From: Pseudomonadota bacterium
Lineage (GTDB): Bacteria; Pseudomonadota; Alphaproteobacteria; Acetobacterales; Acetobacteraceae
Direction of reading: 5' to 3'
Length of the DNA: 64,000 nt
Assembly: GCA_021805565.1 (NCBI GenBank)
Contig: JAJZFA010000013.1
Span: 124,001-188,000, forward strand
A program made the translations under genes and the position numbers. Below are positions 55,674 to 63,017 of this stretch, one piece after another (the first letter of the stretch is position 1; each line of letters begins with the position of its first letter). Below the pieces are notes generated by a model. That model searched no databases. It had not been told where the DNA came from and saw nothing but the letters and a program-made list of their open reading frames with translations.

Positions 55674-56588
55674 TTACACGCGGCGCGCCCTTCGCCTGAG
55701 ATACCGGTGGACGTAAAAGAACAGCGAAATCGCGCCGATGGCCGCGACCAGGCCTCCCGCAAGTGGAATAACCCGATCTCCCGATAGAAAAGTATCTCCC
55801 GAGACCGCTTTATGCAGGCTGTCGATGCCCATTGCCGCCGCCAGGCCGCCGACCGCCCGGCGATCGGAGGGCACCGCATCGCCATACGCATGGCCGGGCC
55901 GGAACGTCAGCCCGGCCAGGAAACCGGTCACTATTTGTCCGACGTCGTCGGCTTTTTCCAGGCTGGTGACGATACCGATTTCCACATAGCCATCCCGCCC
56001 GAAAGCAATCGCATGATAGCGGATTTCACCGTCGGCTTCACGCGGTGCGGATTTGGGGACGATCAGCGCGGACCATGCGATTTGGTGAGTTTCGGGGTTG
56101 TAGTGCGGGGGCACCACCCATCGCCGCGCTTCCTGTTCTTCCAACCGCTGCTGCGTCCGATCTTTGTTGGTTCGGGACAGCGTGTCGTTCAGGCTGGCCA
56201 GCATGTCGTCGTCCGTCCAGGCCAGCGCGGCATCCGAATCGACAAATCCGGCGGGCACGAAGCGTACCGTGCCCTGCGCGTCCATGCCGTCGGGGCCAAC
56301 CAGGATGCCCTCGAAATCGGACGGAACCGACTGATTCCGCACGGCGAGCAAGCGGATAGCCGGTGCCCTCGGTATGAACGCCAAACCGTCCGCGAGACGC
56401 AACGTTGCCCGATCGCCGATATCCGTCTTGGCTGGGGCTCCGACGGCCTGCAGCAGTGCCGATCGGTAAACCTGATCCGGCGTTTCCAGCAGGCCCGTCG
56501 CCGCTGCTTCGTCCGACGACGTGGCGGCCATGGTAACCGACCCGGTCATACCGCATAAAATGATCGCCAACAGAAAACGCGGCAACAT
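55674..56588 (-). CDS. DUF2167 domain-containing membrane protein
   Basis: 304 residues. Signal peptide (about 1-21, ends TMAA), then the DUF2167 pattern: DRATLRLADGLAFIP, TVRFVPAGFVDSD, RWVVPPHYNPETHQIAWSAL, HAIAFGRDGYVEIGIVTSLE, a glycine/alanine hinge and a C-terminal membrane helix followed by RRRARR. Periplasmic body with the tail inside. Function unknown, widespread in proteobacteria. GGAGG precedes ATG 56588; 36 bases after the lipoprotein gene on the same strand. Confidence 0.85.
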   Translation of the reverse strand: MLPRFLLAIILCGMTGSVTMAATSSDEAAATGLLETPDQVYRSALLQAVGAPAKTDIGDRATLRLADGLAFIPRAPAIRLLAVRNQSVPSDFEGILVGPDGMDAQGTVRFVPAGFVDSDAALAWTDDDMLASLNDTLSRTNKDRTQQRLEEQEARRWVVPPHYNPETHQIAWSALIVPKSAPREADGEIRYHAIAFGRDGYVEIGIVTSLEKADDVGQIVTGFLAGLTFRPGHAYGDAVPSDRRAVGGLAAAMGIDSLHKAVSGDTFLSGDRVIPLAGGLVAAIGAISLFFYVHRYLRRRARRV

Positions 56589-57560: not shown

Positions 57561-57650
57561 TGTCGTGCGATGCACGCGGGGAGGGTCGTGCGATGCACGC
57601 GGGGAGGGTCGTGCGATGCACGCGGGGGATGGTCTTGCGATGCACGCACG
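57561..57650. repeat. Four tandem copies of a 23-bp repeat with an internal dyad
   Basis: Units GGTCGTGCGATGCACGCGGG plus GAG at 57561-57583, 57584-57606 and 57607-57630, and a partial, changed unit at 57631-57650. Each contains GTGC-GAT-GCAC. They lie 38-127 bases before the hypothetical gene starting at 57523 and beyond the cofC stop (57747). Confidence 0.85.
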
Positions 57651-57746: not shown

Positions 57747-58394
57747 CTAAAGCCCAAACCCTTCCAGCAGCGCCAGCGTTCGCGTTGGCATGCGCGGCCG
57801 GACCGCCATGAACGCCCGCAAATCCGCCGGATGATCGATATCCAGTCCGATCCCGTGCAACCGGACCACGGTTGGTTCGATCCCGAGCGCTCGCGCCGCC
57901 ATCAGATGCGGAAAATAGCTATCGTCGCCGAACCGCAAAGGCACGGAAAACGGCGGCGCGCACAATACCGCGTTGGACCCTAGCGCGTCGTGCGCCGGCG
58001 CGATGGTAAACGACGGTGGTGCCAGGCAGGATGAAACCACCGCATCGATCTCCCGCGACGTCACACGCGGAATATCCCCCGGCACCGTCAGCAGGGCGCC
58101 TTTGCCTTCCGCGGTCAACACCTGGGCCATTCCGTTGACGGCGCCGGTATGCCCGTCCAGCGCACCCAGGGTCACAACCCTGGCGCCGTAACGATATGCC
58201 AGGTCGGCGGCCACCGGATCGACGGTATTGACCAAAATTCCAGCCAGCCGTGTGGCTCCGGCCAATGCCGCCAGAACGTCTTCCAGCATCGTCGCCGCCA
58301 GAACCTCCCGCTGGTTCGGCGTCAGGATCGAACCGGTTCGCGACTTCGCCCCGGTAAAGGCCTTCACCGGCACGCACGCCCACACATCGGTCAT
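57747..58394 (-). CDS. cofC: Phospholactate/phosphoenolpyruvate guanylyltransferase (CofC/FbiD), F420 biosynthesis
   Basis: 215 residues. Uses GTP to activate 2-phospholactate, PEP or 3-phosphoglycerate for coupling to Fo. Family features: VPVKAFTGAKSRTGSIL at the N terminus, MLEDVLAALAGA, LLTVPGDIPRVTSREI (metal-binding Asp) and NAVLCAPP, with FGDDSYFPHLMAA. Last gene of the operon; ATG 58394 overlaps the cofD stop as ATGA. Which three-carbon acid is used cannot be decided by eye. Confidence 0.92.
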   Translation of the reverse strand: MTDVWACVPVKAFTGAKSRTGSILTPNQREVLAATMLEDVLAALAGATRLAGILVNTVDPVAADLAYRYGARVVTLGALDGHTGAVNGMAQVLTAEGKGALLTVPGDIPRVTSREIDAVVSSCLAPPSFTIAPAHDALGSNAVLCAPPFSVPLRFGDDSYFPHLMAARALGIEPTVVRLHGIGLDIDHPADLRAFMAVRPRMPTRTLALLEGFGL

Positions 58395-59359
58395 GGCACG
58401 CGACGATGCCGTAAGCCGTGCATTTCCCGCCTTCGCAAGGTCGCGGCGGCCTCGACGACGATCTTCGCCAGGGCCTCCCGGTCTTCCATTGTCGTCATCA
58501 GGGTTTGCGCCAACGTCACGCGCGCATCGATCGAGACAACTTCCGCCATATCGGCGTGATCGATCACATACCCGTCCAGCAGGTCGGCATAGCGTTGTGC
58601 CACCGTGCCGGCCGATGGATCCATTCCCAGTTCCGTCATCATTTTCGCCGTCGGTCCCTTCACCGCTCGGCCCGCGATGATCGGAGAAACCGCGATGATC
58701 GGTGCTTTGCAGGCCATCAGCGCGTCCCGCACGCCGGGAATCGCCAGGATCGGTTCCACGCTGATGAACGGGTTGGACGGGCAGATGACCACCGCTTCCA
58801 ACGCCGGATCGGCCAGCGCGGCGATAAAGGCCGGATGTGGCTTCGCGGCCCCCGCACCCTGGAATTGCAACTGCGATACCACCGGCTCGCACCGCCGATG
58901 AACAAAATACTCCTGGAAATCGAGCCACCCCAGATCGGTCAGCAGTCGCGTCCGCACCGGATCGTCCGTCATCGGCACCACGCGCGGGCCAACGCCCATG
59001 CGCCGGCACAAATCGGCGGTTACGGCGGACAGGCTTTCGCCGTTCCGCAGCCGCCGTGTTCGCTCCACATGCAAGGCCAGATCGCGGTCGCCCAGACGGA
59101 ACCATGTATCGCCGCCCAGCGCCTCCATCGTTTCCATGAAAGACCAGGTTTCGTCGTGCCGGCCCCACCCGACTTCGCGATTTGCCAGCCCGGACAAAGT
59201 GTAGGCCACGGTGTCGATATCGGGGGAGATCGACAGGCCCAGATGCTCGAAATCGTCGCCGGTATTAACAACGACAAGCAGGTCTTCGGGCGGCATGATT
59301 CGCGACAGGCCGAGGGCCAGTTTCGCGCCCCCCACCCCGCCGGACAAGGCGATGATCAC
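58391..59359 (-). CDS. cofD: 2-phospho-L-lactate transferase (CofD/FbiA), F420 biosynthesis
   Basis: 322 residues. Transfers the phospho-three-carbon-acid moiety from the GDP-activated precursor to 7,8-didemethyl-8-hydroxy-5-deazariboflavin (Fo). Signature N terminus ALSGGVGGAKLALGLS, NTGDDFEHLGLSISPDIDT, and later CPSNPFISVEPILAIPG and GPTAKMM. GTG start at 59359 overlaps the cofE stop (GTGA). Full length relative to mycobacterial FbiA. Confidence 0.95.
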   Translation of the reverse strand: MIIALSGGVGGAKLALGLSRIMPPEDLLVVVNTGDDFEHLGLSISPDIDTVAYTLSGLANREVGWGRHDETWSFMETMEALGGDTWFRLGDRDLALHVERTRRLRNGESLSAVTADLCRRMGVGPRVVPMTDDPVRTRLLTDLGWLDFQEYFVHRRCEPVVSQLQFQGAGAAKPHPAFIAALADPALEAVVICPSNPFISVEPILAIPGVRDALMACKAPIIAVSPIIAGRAVKGPTAKMMTELGMDPSAGTVAQRYADLLDGYVIDHADMAEVVSIDARVTLAQTLMTTMEDREALAKIVVEAAATLRRREMHGLRHRRVP

Positions 59360-60117
59360 TGGAACAAATCCTCCTCAGGCGGACGTATCATCTCCGCCAC
59401 CGGCATATCCGGTGCGTGCCACGTCAGGCCGCGCACCACAACAACGGGTTGGCCTTCCGCCGCCTGACCCTGCAACAACGACGCGGCGGCGGCAATCTCA
59501 TCGGCGAAACCGATGATGCTGACCTCCAGCGTCCGGCCGAATAAATCGGGCTGGCCGCGCAAGTCGATAACGGATGGCAGGCCGGCCGACCCGATCGCCA
59601 CGCCCGCGGTGCCGCGCCGCCAGGCGCGTCCGAAACTGTCGCTGATCACCACGCCCACATCGGCGTACGGGGCCAGTGCGGTACGGATCGCGGCGGCCGA
59701 ACCGTCCGGGTCCAGCGGCAGCAGCAGCGCGCGCTGCCGTCCGTCCGCCGCCGCCACGTTGGACTGGTCCACCCCCGCGTTGGCCATCACGAACCCCAGC
59801 CGGTGCTGCATGATCATCAGGTTGGGCCGGCTGCGCACCACCTTGACCGATTCGGACAGCACGATCTGCACGATGCGCGGATCCTTGCCGGTTTCCGCCG
59901 CGAGTCCGACGGCTTCGTCCGACGGCACGATATCCGCCAGATCGACGGTGCGGCCCTCGGCTTTGGAGACGATTTTCTGCGCGATCACCACAACGTCGCG
60001 GTTCCGCAATTGCTGGCCGGCGCGCGCGAGGCCGGCCAGGATCAGGGCGACCAGATCGTCCCCTTCCCGCACCATGGGCAGGCCGGGTAGGGCAAACAGT
60101 TCCAGGCGGGCGGTCAT
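59356..60117 (-). CDS. cofE: Coenzyme F420-0:L-glutamate ligase (CofE), F420 biosynthesis
   Basis: 253 residues. GTP-dependent addition of the glutamate tail. Recognisable: LFALPGLPMVREGDDL, VVIAQKIVSKAEGR, RIVQIVLSESVKVVRSRPN, LGFVMANAGVDQSNVA, ADVGVVISDSFGRAWRRGTA and VSIIGFADEIAAAASLL. Length equals archaeal CofE; the C-terminal nitroreductase-like domain of mycobacterial FbiB, which reduces dehydro-F420, is absent. Begins one base after the fgd stop. Confidence 0.94.
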   Translation of the reverse strand: MTARLELFALPGLPMVREGDDLVALILAGLARAGQQLRNRDVVVIAQKIVSKAEGRTVDLADIVPSDEAVGLAAETGKDPRIVQIVLSESVKVVRSRPNLMIMQHRLGFVMANAGVDQSNVAAADGRQRALLLPLDPDGSAAAIRTALAPYADVGVVISDSFGRAWRRGTAGVAIGSAGLPSVIDLRGQPDLFGRTLEVSIIGFADEIAAAASLLQGQAAEGQPVVVVRGLTWHAPDMPVAEMIRPPEEDLFQ

Positions 60118-60118
60118 A

Positions 60119-61126
60119 TTACCCGAACTGTTTCCGCAACTTCGGCAGCACCAGTTCGCCGTAGATTTTCAAAAAGCGGGCCTGATCGTTGCCTGGGGCG
60201 TGGAAGACGAGGTGGCGGAATCCCATATCGATATAGGGCTTGATCTTTTCGATATGCTCGTCTGGGTCGGATGACACGATCCAGCGGCTGGCGGCGCGTT
60301 CGATCGGAAGGGCGTCGGCGAGGCGCTCCATTTCCTTCGGATCGTGTACCGTCATTTTTTCTTCCGGGGTCAGCGCCAGCGCGGCCCAGATGCGCGTGTC
60401 GTCCAGCGCGCGCTGCCTGTCGGTGTCGAAGGACACCTTCATCTCGATCATCCGGTCGAAGTCCGGCTTGGGCGTGGACGACAGGGCCAACCCCTCGGCG
60501 ACGTTCGGCAGCAGGGTTTCGGTGTACAGGTCCCATTTCTTGCCGCTGGTGCAGATGAATCCGTCCGCCATCCGGCCGGCATATTTGGCAACCTGCGGGC
60601 CGGCGCCGGCCACATAGATCGGCAGGAACGCGCCGGGTTTGTCGTAGATCGTGGCACCTTGGGTTTTGTAGTATTCGCCCTGGAACGTAAGGTCGTCCTC
60701 GGACCAAAGCTTGCGGATCAGTCCGATCGCCTCCCGCAGCCGAGCGAAGCGTTCCTTCATTTCGGGCCAGACCATGCCGGTGGAGGGAACCTCGTTCAGG
60801 CCCTCGCCGGTGCCGACACCCAGGATGACGCGGCCGGGGAACATGGACCCCAGCGTGCCGAACACCTGGGCAACCACGGACGGATGATACCGGAAGGTCG
60901 GCGTGAGTACGCTGGTACCCATCACGATGTGCTGGGTGCTCGCGCCCAGTGCGCCCAGCCATGCGAGTGCGGACGGGGCGTGGCCGTCCGTGTGCCGCCA
61001 GGGCTGGAAATGGTCGCTGACGAAGACAGAATCGAAGCCTGCCTGTTCGGCCGCCACCGAGAAATCCAACAACAGCCGGGGCGCGAACTGCTCCGCCGAC
61101 GCCTTATAGCCGAGTTTCAAGGTCAT
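60119..61126 (-). CDS. fgd: F420-dependent glucose-6-phosphate dehydrogenase
   Basis: 335 residues, luciferase-like TIM barrel, virtually the length of M. tuberculosis FGD1 (336). Oxidises glucose-6-phosphate to 6-phosphogluconolactone with F420. Compared from memory with FGD1: F420 contacts Glu12, Asp38-His39, Trp43 and Glu108, and sugar-phosphate contacts Lys196, Lys257 and Arg281 are all in place; [13 protein letters not shown] and VFHAPGNDQ are also FGD-like. ATG 61126 follows AAGGAAG. First gene of the F420 operon, divergent from nasT. Confidence 0.92.
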
Positions 61127-61302
61127 TGATCTGCTTCCTTCATTTGGCCGCAGGCTACCGCCGACCCGGTGCCGGGGCAATCCGGGTCCGGTTCGTTGCC
61201 GATGCGGGATGTGCATGCGTTTCGCGCATCGGTTGGCGCATGTTTGGGCGGCTATGCGTCGCGTGCCGCGATTTGGGTCGTGCCGCCGCCAATGCGGTGC
61301 CG

Positions 61303-61318
61303 CGGCACGGACCTTGCG
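61303..61318 (+). promoter_or_regulatory. Sigma-54 (RpoN) promoter of nasTS
   Basis: CGGCACGGACCTTGCG: GG (61304-61305), ten bases, GC (61316-61317). It matches TGGCACG-N4-TTGC at all but the first base. Transcription should start near 61329, 25 bases before the nasT GTG. Upstream, ATGCG-N5-CGCAT dyads (around 61215-61230) might be activator sites. Confidence 0.8.
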
Positions 61319-61353
61319 TTCAACCTGTCCATGCCTGGCGGAAATGTACACCG

Positions 61354-61929
61354 GTGAAAGTCCTGCTGGCCGACGACGACGCCGAACGGGCCAGCGCCGT
61401 CGCGCGCATTCTGGCCGCGGACGCCGGGCTGTCCGTGCTGCGGCTGAAGCCGGGCGAATCGCTGGCGGGCGCGGTCGCTGCCCTCGCGCCCGATGTCGTG
61501 CTGGTGGATATGGCGCGTCCGGATCGCGACGCGCTGGATGGCATAAGACAGGTGGCGGCGCTGAATTCCCGTCCCGTGGTGCTGTTCGTGGACGAAGACG
61601 ATCCAGCGTTCATGGAGGAAGCAATCGTCGCCGGGGTGTCCTCGTACAATGCCATCGGCATGCCGCCGCCTGACGTGAAGCCTATCCTGCGCGCCGCCGT
61701 CGCCCTGTTCCGCCGCCATCAACAAGCACGATCCGATCTGCAACAGGCTGAAAACCGCCTGAATGAACGCTCCACGATCGACCGGGCCAAGGCGATCCTG
61801 ATCAAGCAGCGCCGCATGAGCGAGCCGGACGCCTATAAATATCTGCGCCGTACCGCCATGAGCAGTGCCAGGCGGATCGTCGATGTCGCGGGCGACGTGA
61901 TCGAAAATCTGGAAGGACATCCCCGATGA
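61354..61929 (+). CDS. nasT: ANTAR-domain response regulator NasT (nitrate-responsive antiterminator)
   Basis: 191 residues. Receiver-like domain ([17 protein letters not shown]; Asp in [12 protein letters not shown]) and C-terminal ANTAR RNA-binding domain ([20 protein letters not shown], then [13 protein letters not shown]). NasT binds leader hairpins to prevent termination ahead of nitrate assimilation genes and is held by NasS in the absence of nitrate. GTG start 61354 with GGCGGAAA upstream; no nearer ATG is in frame. Overlaps nasS (ATGA, 61926-61929). Confidence 0.92.
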
Positions 61930-63017
61930 CCCAGCCGATCCGCATCGGTCTGCTAAGACTGGTCGATAGTGCCCCCATCGTCGTTGCCAAGGCCCGCGGC
62001 CTGTTCCGCGATCAGGGCATCGACGTGCAAATCGTCATCGAACCCTCGTGGGCGAATATCGCCGATAAACTGACATATGGGCTGCTGGACGCGGCGGTCA
62101 TGCTGCCGCCGCTGGCCCTGGCTGCCTGTGCCGGATTGCGCGGCCCGAAGGCGCGAATGGTGGTGCCGATGTCGCTCAGCCGGGGCGGCAACGCCATTGT
62201 GGTCAGCAACGCGATCGCCGCCAGCCTGGCCGATGGCGACCCGCGTCCCAGGCCGCGACTGCTGAACTGGCTGCGGTCGCAACCGACCCGCCCGCGTTTC
62301 GCGGTAGTGCACGCGTTCTCGACCCATAATCTGCTGCTGCGATACTGGCTGGCATCGGGCGGCGCGGATCCCGATCGCGACATCGAAACCGTTGTGATCC
62401 CTCCGGAAACCGTGGTCGCCGCACTGGCCGAGGGCAGCATCGCCGGATTTTGCGCCGGCGCACCCTGGGGAGACGTCGCGGAGCGGGAAGCCGCCGGTCG
62501 GGTGCTGATCGGCACGTCGGCGATCTGGCCGTTCCACCCGGAGAAATGCCTTTGCTTTCATGAAGGTTGGGCCAACGCCAACCCGAGGTCGCTGCATCGC
62601 TTGCTGCGTGCGGTGCTGCTGGCCCAAATCCGCTGCGACCTGCCCGAAGAAGCGCCGGCGATCGCCGCGCTTTTAGCCGATCCGGATGGGTTGCGGCTGC
62701 CGGTGGACTCCAGCCTGGCAGCATTGCCCGGCGGATCGGGGATTGAATCGATCCGGTTCCATACGCGCGAGGCGTGGTTTCCGGCGCACGCGCATGCGGT
62801 CTGGTTCCTGGGTCAGATGGTACGATGGGGCTGGCTGGACGGCCGGACCGACCTGAACGGCTTGGCGGCGGCGGTTTACCGGCCGGATTTGCTTGCCCCG
62901 GCCGTGGAACGGGAGGGCGTTTACCCTGCCGCTGGCTTGCCCGCGCTTGAAGGGACCGCGATGCTGCCATTGCCTGGAGACGATGCATTTTCTTCAAACG
63001 GCCGCGATCGGCGTTAG
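61926..63017 (+). CDS. nasS: Nitrate-sensing NasS (NrtA/CmpA-type periplasmic-fold protein without signal peptide)
   Basis: 363 residues, CmpA/NrtA-like fold. IRIGLLRLVDSAPIVVAKAR, EPSWANIADKLTYGLLDAAV, VVPMSLSRGGNAIVVSN, HAFSTHNLLLRYWLASGG, and GFCAGAPWGDVA, then HPEKCLCFHEGWA are typical. No export signal, so it works in the cytoplasm as the nitrate/nitrite sensor that sequesters NasT. Order nasT-nasS with overlap is as in Paracoccus. Confidence 0.9.
   Translation: MTQPIRIGLLRLVDSAPIVVAKARGLFRDQGIDVQIVIEPSWANIADKLTYGLLDAAVMLPPLALAACAGLRGPKARMVVPMSLSRGGNAIVVSNAIAASLADGDPRPRPRLLNWLRSQPTRPRFAVVHAFSTHNLLLRYWLASGGADPDRDIETVVIPPETVVAALAEGSIAGFCAGAPWGDVAEREAAGRVLIGTSAIWPFHPEKCLCFHEGWANANPRSLHRLLRAVLLAQIRCDLPEEAPAIAALLADPDGLRLPVDSSLAALPGGSGIESIRFHTREAWFPAHAHAVWFLGQMVRWGWLDGRTDLNGLAAAVYRPDLLAPAVEREGVYPAAGLPALEGTAMLPLPGDDAFSSNGRDRR

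What the first reader, a model, noticed from the sequence alone, without database searches (positions are those of the whole stretch)
57747..61126. Complete, tightly coupled F420 operon with FGD in a proteobacterium
fgd-cofE-cofD-cofC are consecutive with 1-base spacing or 4-base overlaps, so they are made together. F420 is best known from archaea and actinobacteria and is sporadic in proteobacteria. Here the operon carries its own reducing enzyme: the FGD-like protein keeps the residues that FGD1 uses for F420 and for glucose-6-phosphate. That implies F420H2 made from sugar phosphate and an F420-dependent metabolism not visible in the window.
Basis: partly seen in the sequence, partly recalled or inferred. 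Interest (0 to 1): 0.85.

Follow-up and report, generated by a model that had tools for sequence, protein, structure and literature searches.

The report
F420 cofactor operon in acetic-acid-bacteria relatives
The genes really do form a compact operon that makes the redox cofactor F420 together with an enzyme likely to charge it from sugar phosphate, but the same operon runs through many relatives and was already predicted for alphaproteobacteria, so it is a good example of a known system rather than a new one.

Summary
In detail: fgd-cofE-cofD-cofC lie on the minus strand at 57747-61126, one base apart or overlapping by four, each over its NCBIfam cut-off. "Complete" is too strong: FO synthase (FbiC) is on another contig and no FbiB-type dehydro-F420 reductase reached cut-off. 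Nearest relatives are Rhodopila/Acetobacteraceae. Of 299 genomes of the order, 48 have cofD and 45 FGD over cut-off, FGD always with cofD; 41 of 80 named loci keep all four genes in order. A 2021 review already predicts Fgd in alphaproteobacteria.

New detail: Fno reaches cut-off only where FGD is absent (3 of 4 FGD-lacking, 0 of 45 FGD-bearing cofD genomes), in fgd's slot. Own genome has 49 LLM matches; LLM number tracks cofD. Catalytic and phosphate residues are invariant, but Gly177, which marks G6P-specific FGD, is Ala here and in 93 of 110 relatives, so strict G6P use is open. 28 of 45 FGD genomes show no ordinary G6P dehydrogenase, but the window's own has two.

The parts
60119..61126 (-). 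[quoted passage not shown]
   Evidence: TIGR03554 479 bits over cut-off 420; 59-60% identical to Mtb 3b4y and R. jostii 5lxe; catalytic and phosphate residues invariant, Ala at Mtb Gly177
59356..60117 (-). cofE: F420-0:L-glutamate ligase, 253 aa
   Evidence: TIGR01916 270 bits over 181; one base after fgd
58391..59359 (-). cofD: 2-phospho-L-lactate (or PEP-derived) transferase, GTG start, 322 aa
   Evidence: TIGR01819 304 bits over 257; GTGA overlap with cofE
57747..58394 (-). cofC: guanylyltransferase for the tail precursor, 215 aa
   Evidence: TIGR03552 115 bits over 105; ATGA overlap with cofD; Gly at the 3-PG-diagnostic position

Best explanation
The four genes are one transcription unit. 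CofC activates a three-carbon phospho-acid (PEP or 2-phospho-lactate by its pocket, not 3-phosphoglycerate), CofD joins it to FO made by FbiC elsewhere in the genome, CofE adds glutamates, and the FGD-family enzyme reduces the finished F420 with a sugar 6-phosphate, most likely glucose 6-phosphate. F420H2 then serves part of a large set of luciferase-like (LLM) oxidoreductases. Shown here: gene identity, arrangement, conservation, presence of FbiC and many LLM genes, conserved catalytic residues. Inferred: co-transcription, activities, substrate, that F420 is made, and that LLM enzymes use it.
For: Family scores; arrangement; FbiC as an 814-aa open frame, NF006687 1133 bits over 1018, with an LLM gene starting 10-31 bases after it (by choice of start) and two more LLM genes divergent from it. 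In 299 genomes of the order FGD (45 over cut-off) never occurs without cofD (49 with a match, 48 over cut-off); both are on one contig in 43 of 45. fgd-cofE in 69 of 80 and all four genes in 41 of 80 named loci. LLM first-look counts: median 39 in 49 cofD+ against 11 in 229 cofD- genomes, and higher per Mb in each of three genome-size classes from 3 Mb up. FGD residues D39, H40, W44, E109, T195, K198, K259, R283 are the same in 110 of 110 aligned relatives.
Against: No F420 has been measured in this group, as far as I saw. No dehydro-F420 reductase of FbiB type over cut-off in 30 of 30 cofD+ genomes tested, own included, so the last reduction of the tail is unexplained. The specificity-correlated residue is Ala, neither Gly of FGD nor Ser of FSD. 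The two alphaproteobacteria that were measured (Paracoccus, Oligotropha) held only traces (review passage). NCBIfam 'F420' LLM names are themselves predictions, and 12 of 25 scanned LLMs did not reach one. The LLM comparison does not correct for descent and uses loose counts.
Confidence: 0.82

Rival explanations
1. The FGD-family enzyme is not a strict G6P dehydrogenase but a broader sugar-6-phosphate dehydrogenase (FSD-like), so F420 is charged from several hexose phosphates.
For: Position 177 is Ala in own and 93 of 110 relatives, Ser in 4 including two of the actinobacterium Herbiconiux, Gly in 13; Mascotti 2018 links Gly/Ser here to FGD/FSD (passages). TIGR03554 does not separate them: four S177 proteins score 469-478, own 479, one Rhodococcus FGD 690. 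Mtb, Rhodococcus and Nocardia FGDs form their own group, 100/100, on a long stem.
Against: No characterised FSD sequence could be fetched; outgroups were too long to root the tree and its bootstrap had not settled; phosphate residues do not differ between FGD and FSD, so they speak for neither. That Herbiconiux S177 proteins are FSDs is my inference.
Confidence: 0.35
2. The operon makes the 3-phosphoglycerate variant 3PG-F420 known from Mycetohabitans.
For: CofC's best solved relative is the 3-PG enzyme 7p97 (E 6e-25 against 6e-12 for FbiD); no FbiB-type reductase over cut-off, which 3PG-F420 would not need (PMC8764529 passage).
Against: The diagnostic Ser of 3-PG enzymes (Mrhiz S162, PMC8764529, passages) is Gly in own CofC and in 46 of 46 aligned relatives.
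Confidence: 0.1
3. The operon is kept but F420 is made only in traces and matters little.
For: Trace F420 in two other alphaproteobacteria (review passage).
Against: All 9 sampled genomes of the genus, own included, have fgd and cofD over cut-off; the genus is among the richest of the sample in LLM candidates (59-125).
Confidence: 0.12
4. Recent transfer of the whole operon from an actinobacterium.
For: FbiC is the fused form thought to have arisen in actinobacteria (review passage).
Against: Own FGD sits with Rhodopila and other Acetobacteraceae in a supported group (100/92) of 87 rows that also holds Reyranella, Bradyrhizobium and Devosia and no actinobacterium; gene order is shared over many genera. 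Only FGD was treed, and few actinobacterial rows were at hand.
Confidence: 0.05

Closest known systems
FGD1 of Mycobacterium tuberculosis (3b4y) and Rhodococcus jostii (5lxe)
   Same: 59-60% identity over the full length; same catalytic and phosphate-binding residues
   Different: Ala instead of Gly at Mtb position 177; separate group in the trees; here fgd heads the cof operon
F420 sugar-6-phosphate dehydrogenases (FSD) of a Nocardioidaceae bacterium and Cryptosporangium (PMC6279831)
   Same: Same family of dehydrogenases, same phosphate residues by that paper (passages)
   Different: FSD has Ser where this has Ala; FSD sequences themselves not available here
Alphaproteobacterial F420 producers (Paracoccus denitrificans, Oligotropha carboxidovorans; review PMC8498797)
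   Same: F420 made in traces by these two; Fgd predicted for alphaproteobacterial producers (passages)
   Different: Review says Fgd in addition to Fno; in the sampled cofD genomes of this order no genome has both over cut-off
Mycetohabitans 3PG-F420 CofC (7p97)
   Same: Closest solved relative of the window's CofC
   Different: Lacks the diagnostic Ser; Gly instead

Membership tests
F420 biosynthesis operon (cofC/D/E) | CofE, CofD and CofC over curated cut-offs | tested here: met
F420 biosynthesis operon (cofC/D/E) | FO synthase (FbiC or CofG+CofH) in the same genome | tested here: met
   FbiC, 814-aa frame on contig C17; not in the operon
F420 biosynthesis operon (cofC/D/E) | Dehydro-F420 reductase (FbiB C-terminal type), needed if PEP is the precursor | tested here: inconclusive
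   TIGR03553 over cut-off in 0 of 30 genomes; weak matches only, in 23 of 30; stand-alone NTR enzymes or 2-PL use not excluded
[quoted passage not shown]
   479 against 420, but the model also takes four Ser177 proteins at 469-478
[quoted passage not shown]
   role of Lys/Arg; roles of His40, Trp44, Glu109 recalled
[quoted passage not shown]
   Ala175 in own
[quoted passage not shown]
   needs purified enzyme
FSD (F420 sugar-6-phosphate dehydrogenase) | Ser at position 177 | tested here: not met
   Ala
3PG-F420 type CofC | Ser at Mrhiz position 162 | tested here: not met
   Gly in own and 46 of 46 aligned relatives

The most novel reading that the evidence does not exclude
In this group of alphaproteobacteria a distinct Ala177 subtype of F420 sugar-6-phosphate dehydrogenase is the main electron entry to F420 (no Fno over cut-off; other F420 reducers such as Adf were not searched), feeds an unusually large LLM network, and in the 28 of 45 FGD genomes without a zwf match is the sole enzyme opening the oxidative pentose phosphate route, making that route F420-dependent there.
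Probability: 0.2. Interest if true: 0.68.

Novelty: new member of a known kind. Interest (0 to 1): 0.4.

Why it matters
F420 work rests mainly on methanogens and actinobacteria (recalled). Named gram-negative carriers (Dankookia rubra, Siccirubricoccus deserti, Bradyrhizobium, Ancylobacter strains) with an operon that couples F420 synthesis to its reduction would offer new hosts and enzymes. The Fgd/Fno exclusivity and the genomes without zwf make 'what reduces F420, and at what cost to NADPH supply' directly testable. For the window itself it mainly extends a predicted trait to one more genome.

Tried and rejected
Replacement of zwf by FGD: FGD genomes lack zwf more often (28 of 45 against 53 of 254 without FGD), but genera that hold both kinds, such as g20, lack zwf with and without FGD, and 6-phosphogluconate dehydrogenase (PF00393) is kept in 28 of 28 zwf-/FGD+ and also in 39 of 53 zwf-/FGD- genomes. 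So the association is confounded by descent and is not evidence of replacement; the window's own genome has two zwf genes. zwf was counted at any match (218 of 299; 217 over cut-off).

Simple gene swap of fgd by npdG: in the three Fno genomes the other genes are diverged from own (CofE 51-52%, CofD 56-57%, CofC 31% in two; the G269 contig ends after cofD), so a different operon version is likelier than an exchange of one gene. The fourth FGD-lacking genome, G090, shows only partial npdG and cofD matches side by side. Against a clean rule: weak npdG matches below cut-off (up to 50 bits) occur in some FGD genomes, for example G191 and G258.

Rooting FGD against FSD: outgroup branches of 6-10 changes per column made the root and fHMAD's place meaningless. 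Rfam on the window: nothing at gathering threshold. Plasmid searches: with own FGD at E 1e-80 only Rhodococcus (16) and Nocardia (1) records; with a Herbiconiux FGD at E 1e-45, 40 records, the rest distant relatives at 34-41%, many annotated TIGR03557 or other LLM class; no FSD was recognised among them. Literature searches: (listings); Ney et al. 2017 was not held and is known only through the review. I saw no experiment on F420 in Acetobacteraceae in the listings.
Full report
What is there. On the minus strand of the window, 61126 to 57747, four open frames follow each other with one base between the first two and four-base overlaps (GTGA, ATGA) at the next two junctions. [quoted passage not shown] Pfam agrees.

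What is missing from it. FO, the chromophore, is made by FbiC. In the search of the own genome the FbiC frame (814 aa) lies on contig C17, not in the window. An LLM gene begins 10 to 31 bases after it, by choice of start, and two more LLM genes run divergently before it; these three fall over cut-off in NCBIfam F420 subfamilies TIGR03560, TIGR03619 and TIGR03559. So the known steps are present in the genome up to the tail reduction, not in the operon alone. A dehydro-F420 reductase of FbiB type did not reach cut-off in any of 30 cofD-bearing genomes tested, own included; 23 of 30 had weak matches.

Where it comes from. The window lies in a 4.49 Mb assembly of 64 contigs. An FGD tree of 113 rows (107 different) puts the protein with Acidisphaera/Rhodopila in a supported group (100/92) of 87 rows holding Acetobacteraceae, Reyranella, Bradyrhizobium and Devosia; branching inside that group is partly open. 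Other alphaproteobacteria (Ancylobacter, Bosea, Roseibium, Mesorhizobium) and the two Herbiconiux fall outside it, and the Mtb and R. jostii enzymes sit on a long branch.

How common. Of 299 genomes drawn from the order, CofD matches in 49 (48 over cut-off; 20 of 65 genera) and FGD is over cut-off in 45. All 45 have cofD; 4 cofD genomes lack FGD. All 9 sampled genomes of the genus have both. Of 30 FGD loci of the order that were fetched (of 45), 27 show cofE then cofD downstream of fgd on the same strand; L030 has no cofE in the stretch held, L048 ends at the contig edge, L056 has cofE 0.65 kb on and then the end of the stretch. Of the 80 best named loci, 69 have cofE directly after fgd, 46 cofE-cofD, 41 all four genes; 11 have no cofE there, and a few others stop at a contig edge (L059, L086, L134). 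Carriers of all or part include Bradyrhizobium, Reyranella, Ancylobacter and Bosea; in Devosia a distant cofE follows fgd and no cofD or cofC is found nearby. The trait is patchy across the order but regular within some lineages.

What reduces F420. [quoted passage not shown] In the 49 cofD genomes here, Fno (npdG) reaches cut-off in 3: G069, G235 and G269 (30 tested, 19). These are three of the four genomes without FGD, and in all three npdG lies immediately before cofE-cofD, the place fgd takes elsewhere. None of the 45 FGD genomes has Fno over cut-off, though some have weak matches up to 50 bits. Within this sample no genome has both. The Fno-type operons are diverged in their other genes, so these are probably two operon versions. 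Other F420 reducers such as Adf were not searched.

Substrate of the FGD. At positions D39, H40, W44, S73, E109, T195, K198, K259 and R283 (Mtb numbering) own and all 110 aligned relatives agree with FGD1. The phosphate pocket Lys198/Lys259/Arg283 is from PMC5352752 (one passage); the catalytic roles of His40, Trp44 and Glu109 are recalled. Mascotti et al. (PMC6279831, passages) report that the phosphate residues do not separate FGD from the broader FSD, but that Gly177 of FGD is Ser in FSD and Met in Adf. Own has Ala, as have 93 of 110 relatives; 13 have Gly (Devosia and near kin) and 4 Ser, among them two Herbiconiux. TIGR03554 gives the four Ser177 proteins 469-478 bits, own 479, and one Rhodococcus FGD 690. 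So oxidation of glucose 6-phosphate is likely; exclusive use of it is open.

Tail of the cofactor. CofC resembles the 3-PG enzyme 7p97 most among solved structures, but the residue diagnostic for 3-PG use (Ser162 of M. rhizoxinica CofC; PMC8764529, passages) is Gly in own and in the 46 of 46 relatives that gave a long enough CofC alignment, of 80 loci. The PEP-contact residues K17, D116, G163, S166, D188 and D190 of FbiD are kept in own and all 46. L92 is His in own and 37 of 46 (the alignment is gapped there, so this is less sure), T148 is Ser in own and 38 of 46. PEP or 2-phospho-lactate is therefore the likelier precursor. If PEP, an unidentified reductase is needed.

What F420 is for. The own genome has 49 LLM (PF00296) matches, two of which look like parts of one gene. 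Of 25 scanned besides FGD, 13 exceed the cut-off of a subfamily that NCBIfam names F420-dependent; of the other 12, three are RutA, one is an LLM monooxygenase family and eight reached no cut-off. The remaining matches were not scanned. Across genomes the first-look LLM count has median 39 in 49 cofD+ and 11 in 229 cofD- genomes (278 of 299 genomes had a listed count). Per Mb it is higher in each of three size classes (3-4, 4-5, 5-7.3 Mb) and, from 4 Mb up, also without the window's genus. The first-look count overstates (59-60 against 49 confirmed in own), and the comparison does not correct for descent.

Pentose phosphate route. Own has two zwf genes. Of 45 FGD genomes 28 have no zwf match, of 254 without FGD 53. 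Whole genera explain much of this, and 6-phosphogluconate dehydrogenase persists with or without FGD, so the figures do not show that FGD replaces Zwf. They do name 28 genomes in which FGD is the only G6P dehydrogenase that I recognised; other G6P dehydrogenase types were not searched.

Verdict. A real, well-conserved operon of a known kind in a class where Fgd was already predicted. The additions are the Fgd/Fno exclusivity in this sample, the Ala177 subtype, the absence of an FbiB-type tail reductase and the link with LLM number. None is experimentally shown.

Noticed in passing
window 61126-63017 (+): Divergent from fgd: a response-regulator/ANTAR protein followed by an NMT1-like binding protein, an arrangement like the nitrate regulators NasT-NasS (that name is recalled).
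   Followed up: partly
window 57562-57647: Between cofC and the next gene, a tandem repeat of 23 bases, 3.7 copies, 95% matches.
   Followed up: partly
window 55674-56588 (-): A DUF2167 protein downstream of cofC.
   Followed up: no
L152:3867-9302 (own genome contig C17): FbiC framed by three LLM genes, one starting 10-31 bases after its stop; candidates for the first F420 users to assay.
   Followed up: partly
L160 (G090:C74:1500-7500): Partial npdG and partial cofD matches side by side in a genome without FGD over cut-off; looks like a remnant of a Fno-type operon.
   Followed up: no
L111, L114, L115, L117, L118, L123-L126, L129, L135-L137 (Devosia and near kin): These FGDs keep Gly177 and are followed by a distant cofE (37-42%) with no cofD or cofC found nearby.
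   Followed up: no
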